Shown in pieces: positions 1,784 through 60,991 of a DNA stretch of 64,000 bases (positions are counted from its first letter, which is position 1; every line of letters starts with the position of its first letter). The stretch is from Allofranklinella schreckenbergeri (GTDB taxonomy: Bacteria > Pseudomonadota > Gammaproteobacteria > Burkholderiales > Burkholderiaceae_C): assembly GCF_003703475.1 (NCBI RefSeq), contig NZ_RDQM01000002.1:62001-126000 (forward strand), written 5' to 3'. The position numbers were made by a program, and so were the translations under genes. The notes beneath the pieces were generated by a model, which was not told the origin of the DNA, ran no database searches, and saw nothing but the letters and a program-made list of their open reading frames with translations.

Positions 1784-1853
1784 TATCAATCAATAGGAAA
1801 AATAATTGCCTTGTTTAGGCATGATGGTATTGAATCCGTTTTTCTTGTAAGAA
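1784..1853 (+). repeat. AT-rich palindromic element, copy 1
   Basis: Member of the dispersed element family described in the findings. It has the left end ATCAATCAATAGGAAAA and the core TGCCTTGTTTAGGCATGATG followed by GTATTGAA. The right end is degraded (TTTTTCTTGTAA). It lies between two convergent genes. Confidence 0.7.
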
Positions 1854-1876
1854 ATTTTGCACAAGTGGGCGCCTCG

Positions 1877-1908
1877 AACCGTGCGGTCGGACACCGCACG
1901 GTTTTTTT
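1877..1908 (+). terminator. Strong intrinsic terminator facing tsaB
   Basis: An 11 bp perfect stem (AACCGTGCGGT / ACCGCACGGTT), a 5-base loop and seven T. It stops rightward transcription from the HTH gene. The tsaB stop codon, read leftwards, sits inside the T-tract, so the two genes share this junction. Confidence 0.85.
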
Positions 1909-2656
1909 ATGGCCTGGTCTGGGCTTTTGCCTGTGCCTGGGTTTGCGCGCGCTCGCGCTCTTCCGTGGTTTGGGCCACTTTGTCGCGCACGTACAGTGGC
2001 GCCACCGCAGCGGGCGCTTGCAGCAGGCCGCGGGCGATCAGGCCGGGGGCCAGCGACAGCATGGCGAGGGCGCTGGGGCGCGCGAAGAAGGATTGGCCGG
2101 CCTTGCCGCACAGGGCATCGGCGTACACCTCCAGCGCGTTGCCGGCCAGGACGTAGCCGTCGGGCACATGCAGCTCAGCTGGCGGCAGCGCGCGGATGGG
2201 GGCTTCGCGCACCCAATGGCCGGGCGCCAGGGAGGCGGGCGCAGCAGCGGCTGATGCGGGCGCGGGCTGCCAGCGCAGCGGCGCGGCGTACACCTCGTGC
2301 ATGCGGGCATCCAGCACGGCCATGACGCGCTGCGCGCCCATCTCCAGGCGGGCGTGCTCGGCGATGGCCAGCAGCGAATCGACCGGCAATGCCTGCAATT
2401 GCGCGCCCCAAGCCAGGCCCTGCGCGGCGGCGCAAGCGGTGCGCAGGCCCGTGAAAGCGCCGGGGCCGCAGCCGTAAACAATGGCATCGAGCGCGCGCAG
2501 GCAAAGGCCCGCCCGCTCCAGCAAGGCCAGCGCTTGGGGCAAGAGCTGGCGCGAGGCTTGTGGCCCGCCCGCCTGTTCGACATGCAACTGCACAGAGCCG
2601 TTTTGCACGGCGATGGAGAGCTGATCGGTACTGGTGTCGAAGGCGAGAAGGCGCAT
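1907..2656 (-). CDS. tsaB: tRNA threonylcarbamoyladenosine biosynthesis protein TsaB
   Basis: A 249-residue protein of the ASKHA fold, starting MRLLAFDTSTDQLSIAV. The family signatures are the N-terminal phosphate-binding strand (LAFDTST), the conserved GPGAFTGLR loop near residue 67, and VDSLLAIAEHA. TsaB lacks the metal site of TsaD and acts as its partner. Together with TsaC and TsaE they make the t6A37 modification of ANN-decoding tRNAs in the cytoplasm. The last 50 or so residues (rich in Ala, Gln, Glu and Arg) are a variable tail. It stands alone here and is convergent with the HTH gene. Confidence 0.93.
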   Translation of the reverse strand: MRLLAFDTSTDQLSIAVQNGSVQLHVEQAGGPQASRQLLPQALALLERAGLCLRALDAIVYGCGPGAFTGLRTACAAAQGLAWGAQLQALPVDSLLAIAEHARLEMGAQRVMAVLDARMHEVYAAPLRWQPAPASAAAAPASLAPGHWVREAPIRALPPAELHVPDGYVLAGNALEVYADALCGKAGQSFFARPSALAMLSLAPGLIARGLLQAPAAVAPLYVRDKVAQTTEERERAQTQAQAKAQTRP

Positions 2657-2849
2657 GGCGGGAAAGTGGGCAGGGGGCCGGGCGGCCGGTTGGGCGCATG
2701 CAGCGCCTGCTCAACGCTTTTGGCTGCTCGCGCCGGGATGAAGAATGCACGACAAGGCTATGATTCTGCTGCAAGATATGGCAAGCGATGCGCAGCGCCA
2801 AGGCGTGCCCGCAGAAGGCTTGTATGTTGAACCTGAGTGAGCCAAAGCC

Positions 2850-4427
2850 GTGTGTATGTTGTTTGTAAAAAAATGGGCCGGGCAGTGTAGCGCGATTCCT
2901 TTTGCGGGCCGGGGCGCGGCCCCGGCCGTGGCGGCGGCGCTGGCGCTGCTGGCCTGTGCCTGGCCCGGGGTGGCGCTGGCGCAGGGCCGCGCGCAGGCGG
3001 CGCTGGCCCCGGCAGTGACGGCTCCAACAGCGGCGGCTGCAACGGCGACGGCTTCAATGGCGGCTGCGGGGCAGGCGGCATTGCCCAGGGGCTTTGCTTC
3101 GGCGCTAGCCAAAGCCAAGATTCCGCAGGAGGCGGTGTCGGTTTGGGTGGCCCCGGCCGATGGCAATGGCCAGCCGCGCGTGGCGCACCGCGCCGATCAT
3201 TTGATGAGTCCAGCCTCGACGATGAAGCTGGTGACGACGTATGCGGCGCTCGATCAGCTCGGCCCGGCTTACACCTGGCGCACGCGCATTTACACCGATG
3301 GCGCGATCGACAACGGCAGCTTGCGCGGCAACGTCTATATCCAGGGCGGGGGTGATCCGAAGTTGGTGATGGAACGGCTGTGGCTGCTGCTGCGCCAGTT
3401 GCAGCAGCGCGGCGTGCAGGTGATCGTGGGCGACATCGTGCTCGATCGCAGCGTGTTCGAGCTGCCTGCGCACGATGCGGCAGCGTTCGATGATGAGCCG
3501 CTGCGGCCCTACAACGCTGCGCCCGATGGGTTGCTGATCAACTTCAAATCGGTGGTCATGCGGTTTGTGCCCGATATGGGAAAGGGCGTGGCCCATGTGC
3601 AAATCTCGCCGCCGATGGCGCAATTGGAGGTGCCTGCGACGGTGCCCCTTTCCACCAACGCGAAAACCTGCCCGGCCAGTTGGCGCCAGGGGCTGCGCCT
3701 GGATGTGAGCGAGCCGGAGCGCTGGCGTTTTGCGGGCAGCTATCCGGCCGCTTGCGGCGAGTTGAACTGGCCGGTGGCTTACCCCGACCCGGAGGCGTTT
3801 GCCAACAAGGCGGTGGAGGGCATGTGGCGCGCGCTGGGCGGCAGCCTGACGGGGCGCGTGCATGCGGGCGTGACGCCTGCGGCGCTGCGGCCGATGATTG
3901 TGGAGGCCTCGCTGTCGCTGCCCGAAATCGTGCGCGATGTGAACAAATACAGCAACAACGTGATGGCCGACCACGTGTTTCTGGCGCTGGCGGGCGTGGG
4001 CGGGCAGGGCCGCAACATGCGCCCCAGCGATGCGCAGGCCAACGTGTTGCAGTGGTGGGAGCGGCGCATTGGCAATCCGCGCGCCAGCTTGGTGATGGAC
4101 AACGGCTCGGGTCTGAGCCGCACGGCGCGGGTGACGGCGCATGCACTGGGGCGCATGCTGCAAAACGCCTGGCATTCGGCCGTGATGCCGGAGCTGCTCT
4201 CCTCCATGCCCGCCGTGGGGGTGGATGGCACGATGCGGCGCAGTCGGGCTTCCGGCTCGGCGCATATCAAGACGGGCTCGCTGCGCGACGTTAACGCCAT
4301 TGCGGGCTACGTGCACGGCCACAGCGGGCGGCGCTATGTGCTGGTGGCGTTTGTGAACCACCCCAATGCTGCGGCGGTGCGGGGGGCGGCTTTTGATTCC
4401 TTGATCGATTGGGTGGCGCAGGATTGA
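2850..4427 (+). CDS. dacB: Penicillin-binding protein 4, D-alanyl-D-alanine carboxypeptidase/endopeptidase
   Basis: About 525 residues with an N-terminal signal peptide (hydrophobic stretch about 24-44 ending VALAQG). It contains all three active-site motifs of the S13 peptidase family: STMK at 123-126 (nucleophile Ser123, Lys126), SNN at 368-370 and KTG at 474-476. The insert between the first two motifs has the usual S13 length. The enzyme trims or cleaves peptidoglycan cross-links in the periplasm. The start is uncertain: GTG 2850 or ATG 2856, with no clear Shine-Dalgarno site. An AT-rich palindromic element begins 11 bp after the stop. Confidence 0.92.
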   Translation: MCMLFVKKWAGQCSAIPFAGRGAAPAVAAALALLACAWPGVALAQGRAQAALAPAVTAPTAAAATATASMAAAGQAALPRGFASALAKAKIPQEAVSVWVAPADGNGQPRVAHRADHLMSPASTMKLVTTYAALDQLGPAYTWRTRIYTDGAIDNGSLRGNVYIQGGGDPKLVMERLWLLLRQLQQRGVQVIVGDIVLDRSVFELPAHDAAAFDDEPLRPYNAAPDGLLINFKSVVMRFVPDMGKGVAHVQISPPMAQLEVPATVPLSTNAKTCPASWRQGLRLDVSEPERWRFAGSYPAACGELNWPVAYPDPEAFANKAVEGMWRALGGSLTGRVHAGVTPAALRPMIVEASLSLPEIVRDVNKYSNNVMADHVFLALAGVGGQGRNMRPSDAQANVLQWWERRIGNPRASLVMDNGSGLSRTARVTAHALGRMLQNAWHSAVMPELLSSMPAVGVDGTMRRSRASGSAHIKTGSLRDVNAIAGYVHGHSGRRYVLVAFVNHPNAAAVRGAAFDSLIDWVAQD

Positions 4428-4438
4428 CAGGTTATTTT

Positions 4439-4509
4439 ACAAATCAAAAGGATAAAAAATTGCCTTGTTTTGGCATGATGATATTGAAATCTATTTTCTT
4501 TTGATTTGT
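4439..4509 (+). repeat. AT-rich palindromic element, copy 2 (best consensus copy)
   Basis: A 71 bp element that begins ACAAATCAAAAGGAT and ends CTTTTGATTTGT. The outer 11 bases pair perfectly. The core reads TTGCCTTGTTTTGGCATGATG and ATATTGAA. It lies between dacB and the iron-related operon. Confidence 0.85.
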
Positions 4510-4568
4510 TATAAAGAGCGGATTTGCAGATGGGGTCGGTCTGAAAAACCCCTGAAAATTTATAGCGA

Positions 4569-4585
4569 ATAAGAACAATTCTTAT
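4569..4585 (+). promoter_or_regulatory. Candidate Fur box ahead of the DUF3649-PepSY-DUF3325 operon
   Basis: A 7-3-7 palindrome ATAAGAA-CAA-TTCTTAT in an AT-rich context. It resembles the GATAATNATTATC-type Fur operator, and TTATAT overlapping its right arm could be a -10 box. From here to the first start codon at 4784 there is about 200 bp of high-GC leader in which no convincing gene is seen. Function is inferred from position in front of iron-associated genes. Confidence 0.55.
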
Positions 4586-6931: not shown

Positions 6932-7294
6932 ATGAACAACGCTTGGCATGGCATGCCACTGGTGTGGGCTTTGAGCTTTACAGGCTGTGTGTTGCTGGCC
7001 AGCGCCATGGAGCGCCACCGCGATGATTTCGCCCTCAGCCCTTGGCTAGGCAGCCCGGGCCGCCGCATGGGGCAGGGCGCAGCAGGGTTGGCGCTGGCGG
7101 GGCTGCTTTGCCTGAGTTACTGGCCGCCCGCGCTGGCCGTGTTGATTGGGCTGGGTTTAATGACTTTCGCTGCGCTGGCTTTGGGGTTGTTGCTGACCTA
7201 CGCGCCCCGCCAGGCCAACCGCTTTCTTCTCTGGGGCATAGCCGCCAGCGTGTTGGGGGCGCTCGGGCCGTTGGTATTGCGGTGGTTTGTATAA
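6932..7294 (+). CDS. DUF3325 family membrane protein of an iron-uptake module
   Basis: A 120-residue protein with AAGGAG placed 7 bases before its ATG. Four hydrophobic helices are visible (about 5-22, 48-66, 67-87, 96-118). The MERHRDD segment after the first helix is typical of the family. It is third in the DUF3649-PepSY-DUF3325 set and separated from the PepSY gene by only 37 bp, so it is probably cotranscribed and Fur-controlled. No catalytic residues can be named. The stop codon overlaps the edge of a small palindrome. Confidence 0.78.
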   Translation: MNNAWHGMPLVWALSFTGCVLLASAMERHRDDFALSPWLGSPGRRMGQGAAGLALAGLLCLSYWPPALAVLIGLGLMTFAALALGLLLTYAPRQANRFLLWGIAASVLGALGPLVLRWFV

Positions 7295-13934: not shown

Positions 13935-13954
13935 GGTGGCTGCCCTGTTGTTTT

Positions 13955-14025
13955 ACAATCCAAAAGTAAAATTTATTATATTTATATCATGCCTAAAAAG
14001 GTTGTTTTTATTCCTTTTGATTTGT
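13955..14025 (-). repeat. AT-rich palindromic element, copy 3
   Basis: A 71 bp copy in reverse orientation. Read leftwards it starts ACAAATCAAAAGGAATAAAA, has the core CTTTTTAGGCATGATATAAAT, and ends CTTTTGGATTGT. It lies 10 bp downstream of the moeA stop. Confidence 0.8.
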
Positions 14026-14035
14026 AATTTTAGGG

Positions 14036-15295: not shown

Positions 15296-15360
15296 GGGCG
15301 GATACGCGAAAGGGTTGCAAAAAGGCGGCGCAAGGGCAGAGCGTGCGTGGCGCGATTGAT

Positions 15361-15433
15361 TTCAAATCATGGAAAAATCCATTTGATTTCCATGTTGCCG
15401 AAATGGCGTGATTTTGTTTCTTTTTGATTGGTA
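15361..15433 (-). repeat. AT-rich palindromic element, copy 4
   Basis: Reverse orientation. The left boundary reads TTCAAATCATGG, the core (read leftwards) CGCCATTTCGGCAACATG, and the right end CTTTTTGATTGG. It separates moeA from the upstream moaE-mobA gene, whose stop codon is directly adjacent. Confidence 0.75.
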
Positions 15434-15435
15434 AT

Positions 15436-19780: not shown

Positions 19781-19813
19781 AAGCCTGGGTCTTGCAAGCC
19801 CAGGCTTTTTTTA
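19781..19813 (+). terminator. Terminator after narK2
   Basis: A 9 bp stem AAGCCTGGG / CCCAGGCTT with an inner CTTG/CAAG pair, then seven T. It closes the narK1-narK2 unit. Confidence 0.8.
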
Positions 19814-19878
19814 GTTCAAAAGAAAAAAATTTGCACATTTTTGGCAAATTATTTATGGAGTGTATTTTTCTTTGATCT
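19814..19878 (+). repeat. AT-rich palindromic element, copy 5 (diverged)
   Basis: Starts AGTTCAAAAGAAAAAAA and ends TTTTTCTTTGATCTGG, with the core TTTTTGGCAAATTATTTATGG. It follows the narK2 terminator directly. Divergence from the consensus is greater than in most copies. Confidence 0.55.
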
Positions 19879-19965
19879 GGATTGATGCCGGGGAGTCAAC
19901 CGCTTTGCCACGCCGTCTTGGCATCTTGGCGTACACTGCGCGGCTTGTTCAGTACCGCTACGCCC

Positions 19966-20948: not shown

Positions 20949-20968
20949 GTGCAAATCCAATTTTTTCC

Positions 20969-21036
20969 ACATCAAAGGAATAAAAATAAGCCTGTTTCGG
21001 CATGATGATATTAATGCTGTATTTCTTTTGATTTGT
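20969..21036 (+). repeat. AT-rich palindromic element, copy 6, inside an operon
   Basis: Starts ACATCAAAGGAATAAAA, core AAGCCTGTTTCGGCATGATG and ATATTAA, ends TTTCTTTTGATTTGT. It separates the exporter ATPase from its permease. Further TTTGATTGGTTTTATCGG on the right is also seen beside copy 10. Confidence 0.8.
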
Positions 21037-21064
21037 TTGATTGGTTTTATCGGTTGAAATTGCT

Positions 21065-22226: not shown

Positions 22227-23543
<1,317 letters not shown>

Positions 23544-23607
23544 CACTGCCCAAGCGCGTGGCTGCCCAAGCGCTGGATGGCCTGCAAGGCGGCAAGCCAT
23601 TGGTTTT

Positions 23608-23675
23608 CCAAATGAAGAAAATCAGCTTGATGCCCATCAAGCCGAAACAAGGCTGTTTTATTTCCTTTGATTTGT
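23608..23675 (-). repeat. AT-rich palindromic element, copy 7, abutting a start codon
   Basis: Reverse orientation. Read leftwards it starts ACAAATCAAAGGAAATAAAA, has the core AGCCTTGTTTCGGCTTGATG and ends TTTTCTTCATTTGG. The edge of the element is one base from the predicted ATG of the aminotransferase. Confidence 0.8.
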
Positions 23676-23676
23676 C

Positions 23677-24882
23677 ATGATTGCCGCCCAGCCCGCCACC
23701 CCAGCCACCCCAGCCACCTTTTCCACCCCCGCCATGGCATCGCGCCTGCCCGGCGTGGGCACGACCATTTTTTCCGTCATGTCGGCGCTGGCCGCCCAGC
23801 ACCAGGCCGTCAACCTCGGCCAGGGCTTTCCCGATTTCGATTGCGATGCGACGCTGGTCGATGCCGTGGCCCAGGCCATGCGCGCCGGGCACAACCAATA
23901 CCCGCCCATGCCCGGCGTGCCCGCCTTGCGCCAGGCCATTGCCGCGCAGTTGCAAACGCTCTACGGCCACGCGTACGACGCCGAGCGCGAAATCACCATC
24001 ACCGCCGGGGCCACGCAAGCCATCCTCACCGCCTTGCTTTGCTGCGCCGGGCCGGGCGATGAAGTCATCGTGCTGGAGCCGTGCTACGACTGTTATCTGC
24101 CCGCCATCGCCCTGGCCGGGGCCACCGCCGTGCGCGTGCCGCTCACGCCCGGGAGCTTTCGGCCCGATTTCGACCGCATCGCCGCCGCGCTGGGGCCGCG
24201 CACGCGCGCGCTCATCCTCAACACGCCGCACAACCCCAGCGGCACCGTCTGGAGCGCGGCCGACATGCAACGCCTGGCCGAGCTGCTGGCGCCCACCAAC
24301 GCGCTGCTCATCAGCGACGAGGTGTATGAGCACATGGTGTACGCCCCGCTGCGGCACGAAAGCGTGGCGCGCCACCCGGCGCTGGCCGCGCGCGCGTTCG
24401 TGATTGGCAGCTTTGGCAAGACTTTTCACGTCACCGGCTGGAAGGTGGGCTACGTCGCCGCCCCCGCGCCCCTGAGCGCCGAGCTGCGCAAGGTGCACCA
24501 GTTCAACGTCTTTACCGTCAACACCCCCATGCAGCATGGGCTGGCGGCGTATTTGCGCGATCCGGCGCCGTATCTGAACCTGCCCGCGTTTTACGCTGCC
24601 AAGCGCGATGCCTTCCGCGCCGGGCTGGCGCAAACGCGCTTTCGCCTGCTGCCTTGTGAGGGCACTTACTTCCAGTGCGCCAGCATCGCCGAGCTGGCCG
24701 TGCCCGAGCGCGATTTGCCCGAAGACCAGTTCTGCCAATGGCTGACGCGCGAAATCGGCGTAGCGGCCATCCCCCTCTCGGCCTTTTACGCCGATGGCTT
24801 CGACCAAAAGGTGGTGCGCTTTTGCTTTGCCAAGCAAGAGGCCACGCTGGCCGAGGCGCTGCGGCGGCTGGCGCGCTTGTAA
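23677..24882 (+). CDS. PLP-dependent aminotransferase class I (methionine/kynurenine type, YbdL-like)
   Basis: 401 residues from ATG 23677. The conserved protein begins at about residue 20 (MASRLPGVGTTIFSVMSALA), so ATG 23734 may be the real start; the intervening ATPATPAT stretch is low complexity, and 23677 touches an AT-rich repeat. Fold-type I landmarks are NLGQGFPDFD, ITAGATQAI, NTPHNPSG, ISDEVYEHMVY and the PLP lysine in SFGKTFHVTGWKVGY, with the carboxylate-binding Arg near KVVRFCFAK. It resembles methionine aminotransferase YbdL and kynurenine aminotransferases. The substrate is not certain. Confidence 0.88.
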   Translation: MIAAQPATPATPATFSTPAMASRLPGVGTTIFSVMSALAAQHQAVNLGQGFPDFDCDATLVDAVAQAMRAGHNQYPPMPGVPALRQAIAAQLQTLYGHAYDAEREITITAGATQAILTALLCCAGPGDEVIVLEPCYDCYLPAIALAGATAVRVPLTPGSFRPDFDRIAAALGPRTRALILNTPHNPSGTVWSAADMQRLAELLAPTNALLISDEVYEHMVYAPLRHESVARHPALAARAFVIGSFGKTFHVTGWKVGYVAAPAPLSAELRKVHQFNVFTVNTPMQHGLAAYLRDPAPYLNLPAFYAAKRDAFRAGLAQTRFRLLPCEGTYFQCASIAELAVPERDLPEDQFCQWLTREIGVAAIPLSAFYADGFDQKVVRFCFAKQEATLAEALRRLARL

Positions 24883-28912: not shown

Positions 28913-28986
28913 ATTACAGATCAAGGGAAAATGCAAGCAGCGCTCCTATTGCCGAAATATAGCAATATTTTTTCTTTTTGAATTAA
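28913..28986 (-). repeat. AT-rich palindromic element, copy 9a (diverged)
   Basis: Begins ATTACAGATCAAGGGAAAAT and ends TTTTTTCTTTTTGAATTAA. The reverse core is ATTGCCGAAATATAGCAAT. It is the first of two adjacent copies between yejE and yejF. Confidence 0.65.
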
Positions 28987-28991
28987 AATAT

Positions 28992-29069
28992 GATTGCACA
29001 TCAAGCGCAATTCAATGCTCCATCCATCATGCCGAAAACCGGCTTTTTTATTTCTTTTGATGTGCAATC
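28992..29069 (-). repeat. AT-rich palindromic element, copy 9b
   Basis: Perfect 12 bp terminal arms GATTGCACATCA and TGATGTGCAATC. The reverse core is CATCATGCCGAAAACCGGC. The arms differ from the family consensus at GCAC, but both differ in step so pairing is kept. Confidence 0.75.
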
Positions 29070-31292: not shown

Positions 31293-31349
31293 GCGAGAGG
31301 GGGGCGAGGCGGGGGGGGGCTGCAACAGGGCGAGCGCGTTGGTTTTTTA

Positions 31350-31419
31350 TCAATCAATAGGAAACAAAATCGCCTTGTTTTGGCAATATTTTGTTAGTTT
31401 TATTTTTCTTTTGATTGGT
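31350..31419 (+). repeat. AT-rich palindromic element, copy 10
   Basis: Begins ATCAATCAATAGGAAACAAAA, core TCGCCTTGTTTTGGCAATATT and ends TTTTTCTTTTGATTGG, followed by TTTTATCGG as in copy 6. It lies after the stop of the leftward glycosidase-like gene. Confidence 0.8.
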
Positions 31420-31439
31420 TTTATCGGGTTGTTGCCGGG

Positions 31440-35504: not shown

Positions 35505-35588
35505 GGCTAGGGATTATCCCTGAATTAGCCTTGGCTTAAGAGCTCCGAAAGGCTGCGGCTTGCGGGGCATGGGCTTCTTTGAATTCTA

Positions 35589-35654
35589 TTTCATTGGCAA
35601 AAAAATACCCATGTTTAGGCATGATGGGTATTGAGTTGATTTTCTTTTGATTGA
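35589..35654 (+). repeat. AT-rich palindromic element, copy 12
   Basis: Ends are degraded (TTTCATTGGCAAAA and TTTTCTTTTGATTGATGG). Its interior is a perfect 9 bp stem AATACCCAT / ATGGGTATT around GTTTAGGCATG. It lies 35 bp after the rsmA stop. Confidence 0.7.
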
Positions 35655-35688
35655 TGGGTTGTTGGCGGAGCAGGTGTGTGCCAAAGCC

Positions 35689-37137: not shown

Positions 37138-38106
37138 ATGCCCCGCCAAGATTCCCCATCGCGTCCGCCGCCTCGCTCCAACCCTCGCCGCGCCGAGTCT
37201 GCCGCCAGCACCCCAGCCGACAAGGCCCGCCAAGCCCTGGCCGAGCTGGGGCTGGCGCAAGACGTTTCTGTCGAACTGCTGCAAGCGCTGCACATCCTCA
37301 CTCGCGAAGGACGGCTCAACCAGGATTCGCGCCGCAAGCTCAAGCAGGTGCTGCATTTGGTGCAATTCATCGAGCCGCTGATTCAGGAGGCGGCCCGGGC
37401 CATGCCCGCCGATGGCGCGCCGCCCGATGCAGGCCCCGTGCTGGTGGACCACGGCGCGGGCAAGTCCTACCTGGGCTTTGTGCTGTACGACCTGGTGTTG
37501 CGCCCGTTGGGGCGCGGGCGTGTGGTGAGCGTGGAGTGGCGGCCCGAGCTGATCGCCCGCTCGCAAGCGCTGGCCCAGCGCCTGGGCTTTGCGCGCATGG
37601 CGTTTTTGCCCATGGCCGTGGCCGATGCGCAAAACGCCCCCGAGTTGCCCGCGCGGGTGGACATCGTCACAGCCTTGCACGCCTGTGATAGCGCCACCGA
37701 CGATGCCATCGCCTTCGGCCTGGCCAAACGTGCACGGGCGATGGCGCTGGTGCCTTGCTGCCAGGCCGAGGTTGCCGCCCATCTGCGCATGCACAAAGCC
37801 CTGGCGCTGGCGCGCACGCCCCTGGCCGAGCTGTGGCGCCACCCGCTGCACACGCGCGAGCTGGGCAGCCACCTCACCAACGTCATGCGCTGCCTGTATC
37901 TGGAGGCCCAGGGCTACCAGGTCAGCGTGACCGAACTCACCGGCTGGGAGCACAGCATGAAAAACGAACTCATCATCGCCCGCTACACCGGCCACAAAAA
38001 ACGCAGCGCGCGCCAGCGGCTGGAGGCCATCGCCGCTGAAATGGGCTTGCAGGAGCTGCTGGCGCTGCGCTTTCCCGTGCGCAACGATGGGGGGCGCAGC
38101 CTTTAA
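37138..38106 (+). CDS. SAM-dependent methyltransferase of the Methyltransf_32/TRM13-like group
   Basis: 322 residues from ATG 37138 (MPRQDSPSRPPPRSN). A basic, Pro-rich N-terminus precedes a helical region and the SAM-binding strand VDHGAGKSYLGFVLYDL (about 101-117, DHGAGKSYLG). Later DIVTALHACDSATDDAIAF and ALVPCCQAEVA are characteristic of this group, where the Cys pair may take part in catalysis or metal binding. A tRNA or RNA substrate is suspected but not shown. The longer upstream frame looks non-coding. It is divergent from the PACE gene. Confidence 0.82.
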   Translation: MPRQDSPSRPPPRSNPRRAESAASTPADKARQALAELGLAQDVSVELLQALHILTREGRLNQDSRRKLKQVLHLVQFIEPLIQEAARAMPADGAPPDAGPVLVDHGAGKSYLGFVLYDLVLRPLGRGRVVSVEWRPELIARSQALAQRLGFARMAFLPMAVADAQNAPELPARVDIVTALHACDSATDDAIAFGLAKRARAMALVPCCQAEVAAHLRMHKALALARTPLAELWRHPLHTRELGSHLTNVMRCLYLEAQGYQVSVTELTGWEHSMKNELIIARYTGHKKRSARQRLEAIAAEMGLQELLALRFPVRNDGGRSL

Positions 38107-38196
38107 CACTAGCCTTTAACACTAAGGGTTAATGCTAATATCGCCGCCTTTTCGCACTGCCCCCGTTTACCCTTTCCCCCTCCCACGGCAACCATC

Positions 38197-39423: not shown

Positions 39424-39442
39424 TGGCCTGAGATAAAAATCC

Positions 39443-39510
39443 ATTTCAAAAGGATAAAAAAACCGCCTATCATGGCTTGATAGGCGGTTTTTTTGTTTTC
39501 CTTTGAATGA
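39443..39510 (+). repeat. AT-rich palindromic element, copy 13, evolved into a terminator
   Basis: Begins TTTCAAAAGGATAAAAAAAC and ends GTTTTCCTTTGAATGAAA. The family core is replaced by a 17 bp perfect stem. It lies between the convergent serA and can. Confidence 0.75.
39456..39494. terminator. Bidirectional terminator inside element copy 13
   Basis: A 17 bp perfect stem (AAAAAAACCGCCTATCA / TGATAGGCGGTTTTTTT) and a 5-base loop TGGCT, with A7 and T7 on the outer sides. It can end both serA and can transcripts. Confidence 0.88.
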
Positions 39511-39562
39511 AATATTGAAGGAATTGGGGTGACCGGGAGTTGGCGAAGCGATGACGACCCGA

Positions 39563-49528: not shown

Positions 49529-49551
49529 TAGCTAGTCACTCTGGCGGGGCG
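49529..49551 (-). promoter_or_regulatory. Motif shared with the narK1 upstream region
   Basis: TAGCTAGTCAC then TCTGGCGGGGCG, about 130 bp before the narG start. The same two blocks, with a different spacer, occur before narK1 at 16921. A common regulatory site is inferred from position. Confidence 0.35.
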
Positions 49552-49656
49552 TGCGCATACCAGCGCCGCGATGCAGTTGGCGCATGCACTTCATGTCGAC
49601 CTGCCCGCCAAGGTCGTCATTCAAGCTTTGCAGCTCTGTAGTGCGTCCGAGATGAT

Positions 49657-49728
49657 TTGCACATCAAAGGAAAATTGATCGTCTGATAGACATGCCTAAA
49701 AGGATAGATTTCTTTTCCTTTGATTAGT
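49657..49728 (-). repeat. AT-rich palindromic element, copy 14a
   Basis: Starts GCACATCAAAGGAAAATTG and ends TTTCTTTTCCTTTGATTAG. The reverse core reads CTTTTAGGCATGTC. The ends pair over CAAAGGAAAA / TTTTCCTTTG. First of a neighbouring pair between narG and the ABC binding protein. Confidence 0.75.
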
Positions 49729-49745
49729 TTTTTTCGGAAGTCTTT

Positions 49746-49821
49746 GAATTTCCGGCAAAGGAAATTCCACTACTTGACTGCGTTGCCGAAAAGTGCAGAT
49801 TTTCTTTCCTTTGATTTGGAA
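49746..49821 (-). repeat. AT-rich palindromic element, copy 14b
   Basis: Left end TTTCCGGCAAAGGAAATTCC and right end TTTTCTTTCCTTTGATTTGG. The reverse core reads CACTTTTCGGCAACG. It lies 18 bp from copy 14a in the same orientation. Confidence 0.7.
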
Positions 49822-49969
49822 TTTGGGTGTGGGTGAGGTTGTGGGGCGCTTTTGCCCTGCGGCCGGGTAAGCCCATCAGCGGCGATAGCGGCTTTTACGC
49901 TCTTCTGGTTGTGTTTTCAGTTACGATCCGCCTCTTTGCCCCACAGACCCACAGCCCAAGGAGCTCTAC

Positions 49970-50947
49970 ATGCACGCATCATCCACCCGTCGCCATTTGC
50001 TCAACGCCACTGCGGCCGCCCTGTTGGGGTTTGGCTTGTTGGCAGGCGCGCAGGCGCAAGTCAAATCCGTGGCCGTGACGGCCATCGTTGAACACCCTTC
50101 GCTGGATGCGATCCGCGATGGCGTGAAGGCGGTACTGGAGGAAAACGGCTTCAAGGGCGACAAGCTCAAGTGGCAATACCAAAGCGCCCAGGGCAACACC
50201 GCCACGGCTGCGCAAATCGCGCGCAAATTCATTGGCGAAAAACCTGATGTGATCGTGCCCATCGCCACGCCTTCGGCCCAAGCTGTTGTCTCGGCCACCA
50301 AAGAGATTGCCGTGGTGTATTCGGGCGTGACCGACCCTGTCGCGGCGCAACTGGTGAAAAGCATGGACGCCAGCGGCACCAACGTCACCGGCGTGTCGGA
50401 CGCCGTGGCCTTGGCCGACCAAATCGAGCTGATCAAGAAAATCGTGCCCAATGCCAAGCGCGTGGGCATGGTTTACAACCCAGGCGAGGCCAATTCGGTT
50501 TCCGTGGCGCAAGAACTCAAGCGCCTGCTGCCCCAGTACGGCCTGGAGCTGGTGGAGTCCAACGCGCCGCGCACGGTGGACATCACCGCCGCCACACGCA
50601 ACTTGGTGGGCAAGGTCGATGTGATCTACACCAACTCCGACAACAACGTTTTCTCCGCGCTGGAGGCGCTGATCAAGGTCGCCAACGAGGCCAAGATCCC
50701 CGTGATCTCCTCGGTGACGGACGCCGTCAAGCGCGGCGCCACAGCAGCGCTAGGAATTGACTATTACGACCTGGGCCGCCAAAGCGGCCAGATGGTGGTG
50801 CGCATCCTCAACGGTGAGAAACCCGGCGCCATCCCCTCTGAAACGGGCAAGAAGCTGGAGCTGTTCATCAACCCGGGCGCAGCCAAGAACCAGGGCGCGA
50901 CCCTGCCTGAAGACTTGGTCAAGTCGGCCAAGGAAGTGGTGCAGTAA
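49970..50947 (+). CDS. TrpX-type ABC transporter substrate-binding protein, first copy
   Basis: 325 residues. A twin-arginine-free signal peptide (about 1-28, ending AQAQV) leads to a type I periplasmic-binding fold of the ABC_sub_bind family, with VAVTAIVEHPSLDAIRDG, QGNTATAAQIARKFIGEKPD, ATPSAQAVVSATKEIAVVYSGVTDP (given in parts) and MVYNPGEANS. Family members are linked to tryptophan or other hydrophobic amino acid and nucleoside uptake. AAGGAG lies 6 bases before the ATG. A second, closely similar copy follows after 30 bp, and the permease and ATPase lie downstream. Confidence 0.9.
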   Translation: MHASSTRRHLLNATAAALLGFGLLAGAQAQVKSVAVTAIVEHPSLDAIRDGVKAVLEENGFKGDKLKWQYQSAQGNTATAAQIARKFIGEKPDVIVPIATPSAQAVVSATKEIAVVYSGVTDPVAAQLVKSMDASGTNVTGVSDAVALADQIELIKKIVPNAKRVGMVYNPGEANSVSVAQELKRLLPQYGLELVESNAPRTVDITAATRNLVGKVDVIYTNSDNNVFSALEALIKVANEAKIPVISSVTDAVKRGATAALGIDYYDLGRQSGQMVVRILNGEKPGAIPSETGKKLELFINPGAAKNQGATLPEDLVKSAKEVVQ

Positions 50948-50977: not shown

Positions 50978-51967
50978 ATGATTCAAAAGACTTTTCTGAC
51001 CTCGGTCACGCGCCGCGCCGTGCTGTGCACGGCTGCTGCGGCTGCATTGCTGGGCACCACGGCGACGGCCTACGCGCAAAGCCACTCCGTGGCCGTTACG
51101 GCAATCGTGGAACATCCCGCGCTGGATGCCGTTCGCGATGGTGCCAAGGCGGCGCTGGAGGCTGCTGGCTTTTCCGGCGATCAGCTCAAGTGGCAGTACC
51201 AAAGCGCCCAAGGCAACACCGCTACGGCTGCGCAGATTGCGCGCAAATTCATTGGTGAAAAGCCCAGCGCCATCATCGCCATCGCCACGCCGTCGGCCCA
51301 GGCGGTCGTTGCCGCGACGAAGGACATTCCTGTGGTGTACGCCGCCGTGACCGATCCCGTGGCAGCGCAACTGGTCAAGAGCTGGGAGCCTGCCGGCGGC
51401 AACGTCACCGGCGTGTCGGACGCCCTGGAGCTGGAAGACCAGATCGCGCTGATCAAGAAAATCGTGCCCAATGCCAAGCGCGTGGGCATTGTCTACAACC
51501 CCGGCGAAGCCAACTCCAACGCCGTGGCCGAACAGCTCAAGCAAGTGCTGCCCAAGCACGGCATGGAACTGGTGGAGTCCAGCGCGCCGCGCACGGTGGA
51601 TGTGACCTCGGCCGCGCGCAAGCTCGCTGGTAAGGTGGACGTGATTTACACCAACACGGACAACAACGTGATCTCTGCCTACGAGGCCCTGGCCAAGGTT
51701 GCCAACGAAGCCAAGATCCCCCTGATCGCCTCCGATACCGAGGCGGTGCGCCGTGGTGCGATTGCCGCTTTGGGCGTGGACTACAAAGTCATTGGCCGCC
51801 AAACGGGCGAGTTGGTGGCCCGCATCCTCAAGGGTGAAAAGCCTGGCGACATCGCTTCGCAGCGCGCGGCCAGCCTGGAGCTGTTTGTCAGCACCAAGGC
51901 CGCAGCGGCGCAAGGCGTGACTTTGTCCCAGGAGCTGATCCAGTCTGCCAAGGAAGTGATCCAGTAA
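50978..51967 (+). CDS. TrpX-type ABC transporter substrate-binding protein, second copy
   Basis: 329 residues, a tandem paralogue of the previous gene with the same motifs and long identical stretches (LKWQYQSAQGNTATAAQIAR, IKKIVPNAKRVG, YNPGEAN). The signal peptide ends TATAYAQSH, preceded by RRAVLCTAAAAALLG. Differences cluster in the ligand-facing segments, for example WEPAGG for MDASGT and DTEAVRRGAIAALGVDYK for VTDAVKRGATAALGIDYY, so the two may bind different ligands or affinities. AAGGAG lies before its ATG. It is cotranscribed with the permease. Confidence 0.9.
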   Translation: MIQKTFLTSVTRRAVLCTAAAAALLGTTATAYAQSHSVAVTAIVEHPALDAVRDGAKAALEAAGFSGDQLKWQYQSAQGNTATAAQIARKFIGEKPSAIIAIATPSAQAVVAATKDIPVVYAAVTDPVAAQLVKSWEPAGGNVTGVSDALELEDQIALIKKIVPNAKRVGIVYNPGEANSNAVAEQLKQVLPKHGMELVESSAPRTVDVTSAARKLAGKVDVIYTNTDNNVISAYEALAKVANEAKIPLIASDTEAVRRGAIAALGVDYKVIGRQTGELVARILKGEKPGDIASQRAASLELFVSTKAAAAQGVTLSQELIQSAKEVIQ

Positions 51968-56970: not shown

Positions 56971-57030
56971 TGGCGGCCCCCAACCGTTGCCTTGTCCCCT
57001 TCGGGCGGCCTGCGTGCGGCACAGGCTCTA

Positions 57031-57085: not shown

Positions 57086-57097
57086 CAAGGGATTGCC

Positions 57098-58891
57098 ATG
57101 AGTGCGCACAACATCCACCTGGCAGGCATTGCCGTTTCGCGTGGCATCGTCATTGGCCGCGCGTTGACGCTGGCGCGCGCGCCCTTGCAGGTTGAGCACC
57201 ACATCATCCCCGGCGCGCAGGTGCCTGCCGAGCTGGAGCGCTTGCAGCGCGGCTTTGACCTGGCCATTGGCGAGTTGCGGCGCGTGCAGCAGGGGCTTGC
57301 CGATGAGGCCGCCTACGCCGATTTGCACACCTTGCTGGACGCCCACGCCATGCTGCTCGAGGACGAAGCCTTGCAGCAAGGCGCGGCCCACTACGTGCGC
57401 GAACGCCACTACAACGCCGAATGGGCCTTGATGGAGCAATTGGCCGAACTCTCGCGCGATTTCGACGCCATGGATGACAGCTATCTGCGCGAGCGCAAGG
57501 CCGATCTGGAGCAGCTCGTGGCGCGCGTGCTGCAATGCATGCGCCTGGCCCCCGGCGTGGCGCCACCACCCATGACGGTGTTGCCCAGCGGTGCCGATGC
57601 CAGCCTGGATGTCACCAGCTTGCCGCCCCGGCCGCGCGATGCGCTGCCGCAAATCGTCGTCGCCCACGATTTGGCCCCTGCGGACATGCTGCACTTTCGC
57701 CGGGGCATGTTTGCAGGCTTTGTCACCGATGCGGGCAGCAAAGCCTCGCACACCGCCATCGTGGCGCGCAGCCTGGATATTCCCGCCGTCGTCGGCATGA
57801 AAGATGCCAGCGCGCGCATCGCCCACAACGATTTGCTCATCGTGCATGCCGATGCGGGCCTGGTCATCCTCAACCCCGATGAGGCCACCCTGCAAACCTA
57901 CCGCGGCTTGCAGGCGCAGATGCTCCAGGCGCGCCAGCGCCAGCAGCGCTTGCGCTACACCCCCGCCATCACCCGCGATGGCTGCCAGATCGAGCTGCTG
58001 GCCAACGTCGAGCTGCCCGCCGACTGCGAAGCCGCCGTGGCTGCCGGAGCCGTGGGCGTGGGGCTGTTTCGCAGCGAGTTTCTCTTTCTGGGCCGCCACG
58101 ACAGCCTGCCCGGTGAGGAGGAGCAATACCGCGCCTACCGCGCAGCCATCCAGGCCATGCAGGGCCTGCCGGTCACCATCCGCACCATCGATATTGGCGC
58201 GGACAAGTTGCTGGAGGTTTGCGGCCACGCGCTGCCCAGCCAGGAGCAATCGGCGCTCGGGCTGCGCGCCATCCGCTGGAGCCTGGCCAATCCCGAGCTG
58301 TTTTGCACCCAGTTGCGCGCTCTGTTGCGCGCCGCCGTGCATGGGCCGTTGAACATCTTGTTTCCCATGCTGTCCCAAATGGGTGAAGTGCGCCAAACGC
58401 TGGAGTTGCTGGAGCAAGCCCGCGAGGAGCTGCGCGCGCGCAACGTGGAATTTGGCCCCGTGCGCCTGGGCGCGATGGTGGAGGTGCCCGCTGCCGCCCT
58501 GATGCTGCGGCAGTTTTTGCCGCACTTCGATTTCATCTCCATCGGCAGCAACGACCTGGCCCAATACACCCTCGCGGTTGATCGCGCCCAGGCCAGCGTG
58601 GCGCATTTGTTCGATGCCACCCACCCCGCCGTGCTGCATTTGATCGCCAACGTCATTGCCCAATGCAAGGCCCAGGGCAAATCCGTCTGCCTGTGCGGCG
58701 AAATCGCAGGCGATCCGCACATCACCCACTTGCTGCTGGGCCTGGGCTTGCAATCTTTTTCCATGAACCCGGCCCAATTGCTGGCCGTCAAGGAGCGCAT
58801 TCTCCAGGCCGACACCGGCGTGCTCGCGCCCTGGGCACAGCAGGTGCTGGAGTTGGAGGACACCCAGGCGGCGCTGGAGCCATCTGGCTAG
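57098..58891 (+). CDS. ptsI: PTS enzyme I, phosphoenolpyruvate-protein phosphotransferase
   Basis: 597 residues from ATG 57098. The N-terminal domain carries His218 in DAGSKASHTAIVARSLDIPAV, given as AGSKASHTAIVARS, with LAGIAVSRGIVIGRAL at the start. The C-terminal PEP-binding TIM barrel has GVGLFRSEFLFLGR, RTIDIGADK, PMLSQMGEVR, SIGSNDLAQYTLAVDR and the catalytic Cys in CLCGEIAGD. It is a full-length generic enzyme I that starts the phosphorelay with PEP. A hairpin lies in front, and an AT-rich element follows its stop. Confidence 0.96.
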   Translation: MSAHNIHLAGIAVSRGIVIGRALTLARAPLQVEHHIIPGAQVPAELERLQRGFDLAIGELRRVQQGLADEAAYADLHTLLDAHAMLLEDEALQQGAAHYVRERHYNAEWALMEQLAELSRDFDAMDDSYLRERKADLEQLVARVLQCMRLAPGVAPPPMTVLPSGADASLDVTSLPPRPRDALPQIVVAHDLAPADMLHFRRGMFAGFVTDAGSKASHTAIVARSLDIPAVVGMKDASARIAHNDLLIVHADAGLVILNPDEATLQTYRGLQAQMLQARQRQQRLRYTPAITRDGCQIELLANVELPADCEAAVAAGAVGVGLFRSEFLFLGRHDSLPGEEEQYRAYRAAIQAMQGLPVTIRTIDIGADKLLEVCGHALPSQEQSALGLRAIRWSLANPELFCTQLRALLRAAVHGPLNILFPMLSQMGEVRQTLELLEQAREELRARNVEFGPVRLGAMVEVPAAALMLRQFLPHFDFISIGSNDLAQYTLAVDRAQASVAHLFDATHPAVLHLIANVIAQCKAQGKSVCLCGEIAGDPHITHLLLGLGLQSFSMNPAQLLAVKERILQADTGVLAPWAQQVLELEDTQAALEPSG

Positions 58892-58916
58892 CGGGAAGCT
58901 TTTGGAGGCATTTTTT

Positions 58917-58988
58917 ACCAATCAATAGGCAAAAAATAACCTTGTTTCGGCATGTCGGCTAATAAGACAGTTTTATATTGATTTGTAA
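58917..58988 (+). repeat. AT-rich palindromic element, copy 16
   Basis: Begins ACCAATCAATAGGCAAAAAAT, core ACCTTGTTTCGGCATGTCGG, ends TTTTATATTGATTTGTAAAT. It lies between convergent ptsI and pabB. Confidence 0.75.
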
Positions 58989-59014
58989 ATGATGAGGGCG
59001 TCCTTTGGCGGAGC

Positions 59015-60922
59015 CTAGAGCGTGGCATGTTGGCCGGGCGTGCACTGCGCGGGTAGCAGCCCTTGGAAGGCGTTGCTGACGGCGATGGCTTCGGCGCGGG
59101 CCAGGTCCTGGCGGGTCAGGCGCGCGCTGCGGACGCTGTGGGCGCCCAGATAGGCGGCGGGATCGGCCAGGATGGCGCGGCGCATCACGCCCTCGAGGAT
59201 GTCCAGCTCCAGCGCGGGCGTGTGCCATTGGCCATCCAGGCGCACAAAGACGTTGCAAATGCCGCCTTCAAGCAGATGGCCGCTGGTGTTGAAAAACAGG
59301 CTGTCGAAAGCGCCCTGGGCCGTGGCGTTTTGGCGGCCCTGGTCGTAGTGGGCGCGGTGGGAGGTTTTGAAGCGGCGCAAGAAATCGCGCTCGGGCAGCG
59401 GTTCGGGGGCGATCAGCAGGCGTACGGGGCGTTGCGTGCTGGCGCTGGCCAGGGTGGCGGGGCGAAAGCGCAGCTCGTAGCGGCCATCAGGGAAGTATTC
59501 GATACGCAGGGCTTGCGGCGTTTGCGGCGCGGGCGCGCTGGCGGCGAGGCTTTGGGCTTGTTCCCACAGTTGCGGCGGCACAGGGGGGAACCGCAGGGCG
59601 CGGGCGCTGTCCTCCAGCCGCTGGCGGTGCAGGGGCAGCAGGGGGCAGTGGCCGTGCTCGGCGCGCAGGGTTTCAATCAGGCTGAACTGGGGCGGCAGCT
59701 CGCGCAGAAAGCGGCTTTTCCATTGGCATTCGCGCCATTCGTCGGCGGGGTCGCTGTCGGCGACGATGCCGCTGCCAACGCCGAAATCGCCTTCATGCAG
59801 GCCATCGGCGCGCGGGTGCAGTTGCAAGGTGCGGATGGCGACGTTGAGCGCGCCCTGGCAGCCCAGCGGGTTATCGGCAGGGGCCAGATGCCCGACGCTG
59901 CCGGTGTAAATGCCGCGCGGGGCGGCTTCGAGGTCGCGGATTTTCTCCATGCTCATGCGCTTGGGCGCGCCGGTGATGGAGCCACAGGGGAAGGTGGCGC
60001 GCAACAGCTCGGCCAAGCGCGTGCCGGGGCGCGGGCGGGCCTGGATACGGCTGGTCATTTGCCAGACGGAGCCGTAGGGGGCGACATGAAAGAGCCGGGG
60101 CACGGCGACGCTGCCGTATTCGGCGATGCGGCCCAGGTCGTTGCGCAGCAAGTCCACGATCATGACGTTTTCGGCGCGGTTTTTGAGATCTTGTGCCAGG
60201 GCCTGGGCGCGTTGCCGGTCGCGCTCGGGGTTGTGCAAATCGCGCGCGGCCGTGCCTTTCATCGGCTCGGTTTCGATCAGGCCATCGGGCTGGATGCGCA
60301 GAAACAGCTCGGGGGAAAAGCCCAGCGTCCACACCGGCGGGGCAGGCTGTAAGGGGGCTTGTGCGCAGGCTTGCGCAGCGCCGGGCAGGCGGGCCAGCAG
60401 CCCGTAGGGCACGGGTTGCTGTTGGCGCAGGCGGCGGTAGAGGGCGGCGGGGTGGCCGTAGCTGCGCACCTGGGCGCGGGTGGTGTAGTTGATTTGATAA
60501 ACCTCGCCGCGCGCAATGGCGGCTTGCACCTGGGCGACGTGGGCGCGATAGCTGGCTTCGTCGATGCCATCGGCCCAGGCGCACAGGCCCGCCGGGGCAT
60601 GGCCGCCAGCTTGCTCCAGCCATTGCGCGAGGGCGGCATGCTGAAGCGGGCTGGCCTGGGCGAACCAGTGGAGCTGGGCGCAGACGCGGCTGTCTGGCAG
60701 GTGTTGCAGGGCCTGGCCCCATTCGTAGGGCAGCCAGAGAAAGGCGTGCCAGCCTTGCGCCCAGCCGTGGTGCAGTTGGGCGTCCAAGCCGTCCAGCTCT
60801 GCCGCGCCGAAGGTGTGCGTGCTGCGCCAATCCCATAGCAGGCGGGCCTGGTTGCAGGTGGCGTCGTCGAGCAAAACGAAGGGGGTGGCCTCGGGCAGAG
60901 CCGGGGCTTGCAGATTTTCCAT
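59015..60922 (-). CDS. pabB: Aminodeoxychorismate synthase component I fused to 4-amino-4-deoxychorismate lyase
   Basis: 635 residues. Residues about 1-400 are PabB-like, with GEVYQINYT, SPELFLRI, TEPMKGTAARD, VMIVDLLRNDLGRIA, GSVWQMTSRI and the chorismate-binding end FPCGSITGAPKRMSMEKI plus RGIYTGSVGH. From about 415 a second unit is an aminotransferase-IV PabC domain, with DSLFFNTSGHLLEGGICNVFV and the PLP Lys in FKTSHRAHYDQGR. It makes p-aminobenzoate for folate from chorismate; PabA (glutaminase) is not encoded nearby. Its final codons coincide with a 15-base stretch resembling the ptsHI palindrome. Confidence 0.94.
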   Translation of the reverse strand: MENLQAPALPEATPFVLLDDATCNQARLLWDWRSTHTFGAAELDGLDAQLHHGWAQGWHAFLWLPYEWGQALQHLPDSRVCAQLHWFAQASPLQHAALAQWLEQAGGHAPAGLCAWADGIDEASYRAHVAQVQAAIARGEVYQINYTTRAQVRSYGHPAALYRRLRQQQPVPYGLLARLPGAAQACAQAPLQPAPPVWTLGFSPELFLRIQPDGLIETEPMKGTAARDLHNPERDRQRAQALAQDLKNRAENVMIVDLLRNDLGRIAEYGSVAVPRLFHVAPYGSVWQMTSRIQARPRPGTRLAELLRATFPCGSITGAPKRMSMEKIRDLEAAPRGIYTGSVGHLAPADNPLGCQGALNVAIRTLQLHPRADGLHEGDFGVGSGIVADSDPADEWRECQWKSRFLRELPPQFSLIETLRAEHGHCPLLPLHRQRLEDSARALRFPPVPPQLWEQAQSLAASAPAPQTPQALRIEYFPDGRYELRFRPATLASASTQRPVRLLIAPEPLPERDFLRRFKTSHRAHYDQGRQNATAQGAFDSLFFNTSGHLLEGGICNVFVRLDGQWHTPALELDILEGVMRRAILADPAAYLGAHSVRSARLTRQDLARAEAIAVSNAFQGLLPAQCTPGQHATL

Positions 60923-60991
60923 TTCAATGTATTTTGGGTTTTATTTGTATGTTGCCGAAATGGGTGGATTTCGTTTCTTTTGATTGGTTAT
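60923..60991 (-). repeat. AT-rich palindromic element, copy 17, adjoining the pabB start
   Basis: Reverse orientation. Read leftwards it begins ACCAATCAAAAGAAACGAAAT, has the core CACCCATTTCGGCAACATAC and ends AAAATACATTGAAA. Its left edge is right at the pabB ATG. A terminator for yidC follows on its right. Confidence 0.75.

What the first reader, a model, noticed from the sequence alone, without database searches (positions are those of the whole stretch)
1784..60991. Dense family of AT-rich palindromic elements, at least 19 intergenic copies in 64 kb
Seen directly: about 65-80 bp elements with ends like ACAAATCAAAAGGA and the inverse TTTCTTTTGATTTGT, and a core like GCC-TTGTTT-CGGCATGATG-ATATTGAA. 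Copies lie near 1784, 4439, 13955, 15361, 19814, 20969, 23608, 24907, 28913, 28992, 31350, 34612, 35589, 39443, 49657, 49746, 54827, 58917 and 60923, plus a possible short one at 7293. All are between genes and in both orientations; none is inside a gene, and none occurs in the 40-49.4 kb nar operon interior. Known families (REP, BIME, REPIN, MITE) share the small-palindrome concept, but this AT-rich sequence is not one I recognise. Mobilised non-autonomous element versus a structural or terminator repeat is inference.
Basis: partly seen in the sequence, partly recalled or inferred. Interest (0 to 1): 0.8.

Follow-up and report, generated by a model that had tools for sequence, protein, structure and literature searches.

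The report
Extinct mini-transposon burst at gene ends
About 600 copies of a 75-base AT-rich repeat with inverted ends lie between genes in this bacterium, with a similar load in one close relative, mostly just after the ends of genes, and they look like the frozen remains of one ancient burst of a small mobile element that has since stopped moving.

Summary
All 19 named copies share one ~75-bp element: inverted ends (~TTACAAATCAAAAGGAAA) and a core (GCCTTGTTTCGGCATGATG), GC 0.29 in a 0.64 GC window. The doubtful copy at 7293 is not found by the model. In 864 kb sampled of the 2.82-Mb genome there are 183 copies, hence ~600 genome-wide. Of 10 genomes of the genus, only the own one and its sister (MAG S17M_Sa_44_sub) are loaded; G086 has two copies, on DNA exchanged from this lineage, and G206 one. 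Seven element-bearing gaps that could be traced in other congeners are empty there. All 48 own and 50 sister copies inside aligned blocks sit at the same places, and among 150 copies no two paralogues exceed 86% identity: movement ended before the species split. Elements now drift at about the intergenic rate. In the sample they occupy 60 of 94 convergent gaps (0 of 20,000 random placements reach this) but 14 of 100 divergent ones. I read them as an extinct MITE-like family, targeted to or retained at transcript 3' ends. No target duplication, RAYT or matching insertion sequence was found. A terminator role is possible but not shown.

The parts
1782..1858 (+). element copy, convergent gap
   Evidence: R1 65.7 bits; context
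4436..4512 (+). element copy, best window match, near-perfect inverted ends
   Evidence: R1 82.1 bits; fold
13952..14029 (-). element copy, shared with sister species
   Evidence: R1 61.2 bits; orthologue 75/79 identical
15359..15435 (-). element copy; sister has a strongly diverged element at the same site
   Evidence: R1 71.2 bits; 58/82 identical
19807..19883 (+). element copy directly after a hairpin plus T run that looks like a canonical terminator (by eye)
   Evidence: R1 60.9 bits; sequence
20963..21039 (+). element copy between an ABC-transporter ATPase gene and an ABC-2 permease gene on the same strand; no element in the congeners traced
   Evidence: R1 74.9 bits; genes; relatives
23603..23679 (-). 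element copy
   Evidence: R1 64.1 bits
24902..24978 (+). element copy, convergent gap
   Evidence: R1 75 bits; context
28913..28989 (-). element copy, first of a pair between a BPD-type permease gene and an ABC ATPase gene on the same strand; no element in the congeners traced
   Evidence: R1 60.8 bits; genes; relatives
28993..29068 (-). element copy, second of the pair (gap 3 nt); not a close duplicate of the first
   Evidence: R1 60.5 bits; identity 0.61, 46 of 149 other copies are closer
31346..31422 (+). element copy
   Evidence: R1 69 bits
34609..34686 (-). element copy whose inside forms a strong GC-rich hairpin
   Evidence: R1 55.5 bits; inner MFE -26.0
35582..35655 (+). element copy with inner hairpin
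   Evidence: R1 74.5 bits; inner MFE -12.7
39438..39514 (+). element copy whose inside forms a terminator-like hairpin plus T run; by eye one stem pair changed on both sides in the sister
   Evidence: R1 55.8 bits; inner MFE -26.5; alignment
49656..49732 (-). element copy, one of two in a divergent gap; sister has one element plus an extra gene here
   Evidence: R1 55.4 bits
49747..49823 (-). element copy, second in the divergent gap
   Evidence: R1 64 bits
54827..54903 (+). element copy, conserved in sister
   Evidence: R1 76.5 bits; orthologue 72/77
58913..58989 (+). element copy, convergent gap, conserved in sister
   Evidence: R1 63.7 bits; orthologue 65/80
60916..60992 (-). element copy, degenerate right end, conserved in sister
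   Evidence: R1 48.2 bits; orthologue 73/77

Best explanation
These are copies of a non-autonomous, MITE-like mobile element of about 75 bp: two inverted ends of about 18-20 bp around a short asymmetric core. An unidentified transposase, probably now lost, moved it in one burst in the common ancestor of the window's species and its sister, after the split from the other congeners (inferred). Insertions are seen only between genes, and preferentially just behind stop codons (shown in the sample); whether by target choice or by selection is open. It then stopped moving, and the copies have since drifted at about the intergenic rate (shown in the aligned sample). In transcripts the copies can fold, and a minority have gained strong inner hairpins, so some may now serve as 3' ends or stabilisers of mRNAs (inferred).
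For: Copy number about 600, extrapolated from 183 copies in 864 kb. Shared asymmetric core and inverted ends. Empty gaps: 8 element-bearing gene ends (7 gaps) could be traced in at least one of five congeners, and none shows an element downstream (read by eye over 220 nt); the model finds none in the 17 congener loci, 171 kb. High copy number in 2 of 10 genus genomes; of 150 family genomes only the own one and G086 have hits (stricter filters). 48 of 48 own and 50 of 50 sister copies lying inside 203 kb of aligned blocks are at the same place. Best paralogue pair 0.857 identical and mean 0.616 among the 150 best copies, against an orthologue mean of 0.874 without gaps: no sign of recent transposition. 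Elements 0.862, intergenic 0.879, coding 0.959 identical between the species, gaps as mismatches. G086's two copies lie on tracts much more like this lineage than the rest of G086: from about position 313 of one locus 0.89-1.00 identical per 150 nt to the own genome, and 1.87 kb of the other 98% identical to G205, where window genes are 70-84% identical to G086: passive transfer, with no further spread there.
Against: No target-site duplication beyond chance among 97 copies, and again among 167 anchored of 195. No Y1 or DDE_3 transposase match in the own genome; the multicopy IS5-like DDE_1 element has unrelated ends. Other transposase families were not searched. In 1.32 Mb of the two species no inward pair of end-like sequences 120-4000 nt apart at the strict threshold; at a looser one 3 pairs at 2 places, not examined. 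Over-even filling of convergent gaps is more than passive fossils of random insertion would give. G206's single copy is not explained by exchange from these two genomes.
Confidence: 0.68

Rival explanations
1. The repeat is first of all a functional 3'-end module: a bidirectional, Rho-independent-like terminator or mRNA stabiliser, kept by selection, one per transcript end.
For: Elements in 60 of 94 convergent gaps, over-evenly (0 of 20,000 simulations); 14 of 100 divergent gaps; median 15.5 nt behind the upstream stop in same-strand gaps. Own halves fold better together than chimeric halves (97 copies, z -7.4, 0 of 60 permutations); inner parts z -3.8 and outer arms z -2.8, also 0 of 60 each. 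15 of 164 copies with inner hairpins at -12 kcal/mol or lower against 6.8 (at most 13) in 40 chimera sets.
Against: Not slower to change than other intergenic DNA. Other hairpin-plus-T terminators are not depleted beside elements once masking is matched, if anything commoner (18 of 108 against about 5 of 80). 20 of 168 same-strand pairs with under 30 nt of other gap carry one, so likely inside operons. Column by column the outer arms pair no better than expected. Site-recombinant test weak (p 0.02 and 0.055).
Confidence: 0.2
2. A REP/REPIN-type repeat moved by a RAYT (Y1) transposase.
For: Small, palindromic, extragenic, hundreds of copies, 3'-biased.
Against: No Y1_Tnp match in a genome rated 99.3% complete; full-length 18-20 bp inverted ends and a 75-bp unit.
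Confidence: 0.06
3. Protein-binding or DNA-uptake sites spread by selection for a short motif.
For: Conserved short core; interspecies DNA exchange at loci carrying elements.
Against: Whole 75-bp unit is homologous; 1 of 195 inside a called gene, unlike uptake signals (recalled); IHF consensus (recalled) at chance level, 3 of 195.
Confidence: 0.04
4. Unrelated AT-rich terminators that look alike by chance.
For: AT-rich palindromes at gene ends.
Against: 102 core hits against 0 for the reversed pattern; 78 new copies in 400 kb.
Confidence: 0.01

Closest known systems
Bacterial MITEs in general (review PMC10969869: first of six parts and passages read)
   Same: Under 500 bp, inverted ends of 4-30 bp, AT-rich, intergenic, foldable; direct repeats said to fade with age.
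   Different: No direct repeats and no parent insertion sequence found; strong preference for transcript 3' ends.
Correia elements (CREE) of Neisseria (PMC2649163, passages read)
   Same: Inverted ends with a conserved core; 71-157 bp; most sites conserved between strains.
   Different: Most CREE lie 5' of genes (71 of 113 in FA1090), can form promoters and sometimes hold IHF sites; here the bias is 3' and the IHF consensus is at chance. No sequence comparison with CREE was made.
ERIC (review PMC10969869, passages read)
   Same: Comparable top copy number (711 reported in Photorhabdus luminescens); intergenic.
   Different: Different length (ERIC about 127 bp, recalled); no sequence comparison was made.
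REP/BIME and REPINs (PMC3116915, passages read; PMC2817692, search listing only)
   Same: Extragenic palindromes, hundreds of copies; 3' placement (recalled for E. coli REP).
   Different: Tied to RAYT transposases; no Y1 match in the own genome.

Membership tests
MITE | Length under 500 bp | tested here: met
   about 75-77 bp
MITE | Terminal inverted repeats of 4-30 bp | tested here: met
   mirror-image end profiles, about TTACAAATCA and TGATTTGTAA (82 of 97 copies anchored)
MITE | Flanking direct repeats (fade with age) | tested here: inconclusive
   none beyond chance; copies are old, so loss is expected
MITE | Related autonomous insertion sequence with the same ends | tested here: inconclusive
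   multicopy DDE_1 element has other ends, no DDE_3 in own or sister; no strict inward end pair in 1.32 Mb, 3 loose pairs not examined; other families not searched
MITE | Dispersed by insertion (empty sites in relatives) | tested here: met
   7 gaps traced in congeners, none with an element; exact junctions not resolvable, flanks too diverged
REP/REPIN | RAYT (Y1) transposase in the genome | tested here: not met
   PF01797: 0 matches; 5 of 14 control genomes ring
Intrinsic terminator | GC-rich hairpin followed by T run | tested here: inconclusive
   element-bearing convergent ends: 41 of 108 with elements counted, 18 of 108 outside them; element-free ends 30 of 80
Known Rfam family | Match at gathering score | tested here: not met
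   0 matches in the window
Correia-like | IHF binding site (in some copies of that family) | tested here: not met
   generic IHF consensus (recalled) in 3 of 195, shuffles 2.7

The most novel reading that the evidence does not exclude
The element is a mobile family whose insertion machinery aimed at transcript ends, or whose copies were domesticated there: one ancient burst gave two species a near one-per-gap set of boundary elements, now present between about two thirds of all convergent gene pairs, and partly taking over the native 3'-end architecture of the whole genome.
Probability: 0.25. Interest if true: 0.75.

Novelty: new member of a known kind. Interest (0 to 1): 0.5.

Why it matters
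It is a repeat family not seen in my literature searches, with about 600 copies in a 2.8-Mb genome, at high copy number in only two sister species among those searched. Its start (after the split from congeners) and stop (before the sister split) can be bracketed. That makes it a natural experiment: how one burst of tiny mobile elements reshapes gene ends genome-wide, and whether such fossils are kept as terminators or only tolerated. The element-poor congeners give a before-and-after comparison.

Tried and rejected
Covariation of the outer arms: not above shuffles on 19 copies nor above column expectation on 82, although whole-arm duplexes were slightly better in own than in swapped pairs (z -2.8). 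Orthologue fold test against random mutants looked strong (p 4e-8), but its null is biased because it adds mutations to a sequence that already carries its own; I replaced it by the site-recombinant test, which is weak (diff -0.48 kcal/mol, 30 of 48, p 0.02 forward; 29 of 48, p 0.055 reverse; 150 control segments -0.17, p 0.06). A first small comparison (elements 88%, flanks 81%) suggested conservation; the larger one does not and supersedes it. Terminator replacement: first count 17% against 38% vanished, slightly reversing, after matched masking (convergent 18 of 108 against 2-9 of 80, p 0.04; same-strand 9 of 93 against 11-14 of 264, p 0.13). The chimera tests may partly reflect subfamilies.

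Tandem pairs as duplications: not supported; in the five pairs that could be compared identity is 0.53-0.64, with 9 to 126 of 149 other copies closer. End-like sequences outside the listed elements: 57 hits in 1.32 Mb, by eye mostly further diverged copies, some without an element-like inside; inward pairs at kb distance. IS5-like element: ends AGAACCTGTTCAAAATC, unrelated. Plasmids and phages: no BLAST match to one window copy. Viral contigs: 8 stretches with an exact core match, none supported by the model. Named loci of Comamonadaceae and others: 0 hits in 79 loci, 1.32 Mb. Literature: no paper seen on this repeat in the listings (open-licence full texts only).

Full report
WHAT IS THERE. 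Aligned in one orientation, they share a unit of about 75 bp: an inverted end close to TTACAAATCAAAAGGAAA, a core GCC-TTGTTTC-GGC-ATGATG in which TTT and GGC are among the most constant letters (97 copies), a variable stretch, and the mirror-image end, about TTTTCCTTTTGATTTGTAA. Element GC is 0.287, window GC 0.635. The item at 7293 is a small palindrome without core and is not reported by the model at E <= 1.

HOW MANY. The window is C12:62001-126000 of a 2.82-Mb draft genome in 30 contigs rated 99.3% complete. The core pattern with up to 3 mismatches hits 102 times, its reversed control 0 times. In 20 stretches of 20 kb plus the window it found 97 copies at 39 bits or more, 78 of them outside the window. 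In 864 kb (40 stretches plus window) it listed 184 hits, one a reverse-strand duplicate, so 183 copies, or about 600 per genome by extrapolation. Fourteen more diverged copies, seen at lower scores or with an end-profile scan, were added as 'weak' in the placement count.

WHERE IN THE TREE. The core at up to 2 mismatches: 92 hits in the own genome, 1 or 2 in 20 others of 200 family genomes and none in the rest. Of 150 family genomes only own and G086 have hits (stricter filters; its table names no hit in any other genome). No hit in 79 named loci, 1.32 Mb, of Hydrogenophaga, Polaromonas, Comamonas and others, none in plasmids or phages by BLAST with one copy, none supported in viral contigs. 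G205 is the MAG 'Comamonadaceae bacterium S17M_Sa_44_sub', 94-97% identical in DNA to the window. It has 106 copies in 453 kb (107 hits, one a reverse-strand duplicate).

INSERTED, NOT ANCESTRAL. I looked for the 3' ends of 11 window genes in loci of G086, G200, G201, G202 and G206. Eight of those found in at least one congener have an element behind them in the window (7 gaps: 13952, 15359, 19807, 20963, 23603, 24902 from both sides, 28913/28993); none has one in any congener read, over 220 nt by eye. One G206 stretch is partly masked, and the same next gene is visible in only some cases. The model finds nothing in the 17 congener loci, 171 kb. In three congeners a GC-rich hairpin stands behind the gene at 22227-23543. 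Two gaps lie between same-strand transporter genes: ABC ATPase and ABC-2 permease (20963), BPD permease and ABC ATPase (28913/28993) (genes). The flanks are too diverged to read exact junctions.

NO LONGER MOVING. In 203 kb of aligned blocks between the two loaded species, 48 own copies and 50 sister copies lie wholly inside a block, and all have a counterpart at the same place (own list 164 of the 183, weaker ones left out; block ends excluded). At block ends there are changes of another kind: the window's pair 49656/49747 faces one element plus a 531-aa gene in the sister, and in the sister a deletion of an azlCD-like gene pair (by eye) begins inside an element. Site 15359 carries strongly different elements in the two species (58 of 82 identical), perhaps by replacement. 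Among the 150 best copies the closest paralogue pair is 0.857 identical and the mean is 0.616, while orthologues average 0.874 without gaps. So the last insertions are about as old as, or older than, the species split. With gaps as mismatches, elements are 0.862, other intergenic DNA 0.879 and coding DNA 0.959 identical between the species.

PASSIVE TRANSFER. G086's two copies stand on DNA exchanged from the loaded lineage. At the prp/acnD locus (gene names by eye), identity to the own genome jumps from about 0.77 to 0.96 around position 313 of L147 and stays at 0.89-1.00 per 150 nt. G200 has about 0.79 identity upstream and no element between the genes, though the acnD part is 97.5% identical in G200 too. 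At the other locus 1.87 kb is 98% identical to G205. Window genes are otherwise 70-84% identical to G086. The elements therefore cross species inside flanking DNA and have not multiplied in G086. G206's single copy has no such high-identity flank in the genomes compared and stays unexplained.

PLACEMENT. With a home-made gene caller over 864 kb (short called ORFs overlapping an element were dropped first), 190 of 195 elements (181 of the 183 plus 14 weak) fall in called gaps: 65 in 94 convergent gaps (60 occupied), 110 in 518 same-strand gaps (105 occupied), 15 in 100 divergent gaps (14 occupied). By intergenic length one would expect 24.6, 115.1 and 50.3 (chi-square p 1e-20). One lies inside a called gene, near its start, likely a start error; four are at stretch edges or unassigned. 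In same-strand gaps the median distance is 15.5 nt to the upstream stop and 70 nt to the downstream start, 76 of 110 nearer the stop. Orientation is random (53 to 57). Convergent gaps are filled over-evenly: 60 occupied against 47.1 expected, 0 of 20,000 simulations reaching it; same-strand gaps weakly so (105 against 99.2, P 0.025), divergent gaps not (14 against 14.0). In same-strand gaps occupation rises with gap size, from 20 of 168 under 30 nt to 66 of 244 at 80 nt or more. The 3' bias is strong but not exclusive; some copies lie where operons would continue.

STRUCTURE AND FUNCTION. Own halves fold better than chimeric halves (97 copies, -16.4 against -14.4 kcal/mol, 0 of 60 permutations), and 15 of 164 copies have inner hairpins at -12 or lower against 6.8 expected; 34609 and 39438 are the clearest. 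But the inverted ends do not covary column by column, the site-recombinant test is weak, and other terminators are not depleted beside elements. I conclude that the ends were recognition sequences of a transposition enzyme (inferred), and that hairpin function is at most a later gain in some copies.

MOBILISER. No Y1 (RAYT or IS200/IS605 type) match in the own genome, no DDE_3 in own or sister. DDE_1 matches are present in both loaded species (12 and 5) and absent in G086 and G206, but the multicopy element has unrelated ends. Outside the listed elements no strict inward pair of end-like sequences 120-4000 nt apart was found in 1.32 Mb; three loose pairs at two places were not examined. No target duplication beyond chance.

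CLASSIFICATION. Size, inverted ends, AT-richness, intergenic placement and empty sites meet the description of MITEs in the review PMC10969869 (first of six parts and passages read). Direct repeats and parent element were tested without result, which that review allows for old copies. The RAYT that marks REPINs (passages of PMC3116915) is missing, and the family differs from Correia elements in lying 3' rather than 5' of genes (passages of PMC2649163). I file it as a new family of the MITE-like kind.

Noticed in passing
G000 loci L220, L222, L224, L226, L228 (e.g. L220:1140-1992): An ~853-bp IS5-like insertion sequence (DDE_Tnp_1; 'IS5-like' recalled) in at least five copies 94-99% alike, with ends AGAACCTGTTCAAAATC; DDE_1 matches occur in both element-rich species and not in G086 or G206.
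   Followed up: partly
L147:313-3078 (G086) against L234 (own genome): Mosaic prp/acnD-like locus: sharp rise to 89-100% identity between species whose window genes are 70-84% identical, pointing to interspecies DNA exchange.
   Followed up: partly
L145:278-2149 (G086) against G205: 98% identical tract; the gene before the element ends like a type IV pilin (by eye, not tested).
   Followed up: partly
L063:1147-2742 against window 49544-49951: The sister carries a 531-aa gene with an IPTL-CTERM-like tail (recalled) where the window has only two elements; Pfam gives only sub-threshold matches.
   Followed up: partly
G205 locus L161:5311-7949 against window 38082-38191: AT-rich insertion in the sister with a small Cys-containing peptide ORF and larger ORFs, by eye like a peptide-modification cluster; not tested.
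   Followed up: no
L202:5600-6823 against L194:4916: Sister lacks an azlCD-like gene pair (by eye); the deletion starts inside an element.
   Followed up: partly
window 49970-50947 and 50978-51967: Neighbouring paralogous ABC substrate-binding protein genes (PF04392), 78% identical over 300 nt.
   Followed up: partly
L147 about 1400-1480: By eye, a GC-richer, strongly diverged copy of the element lies just before the good copy in G086, own and G205.
   Followed up: partly
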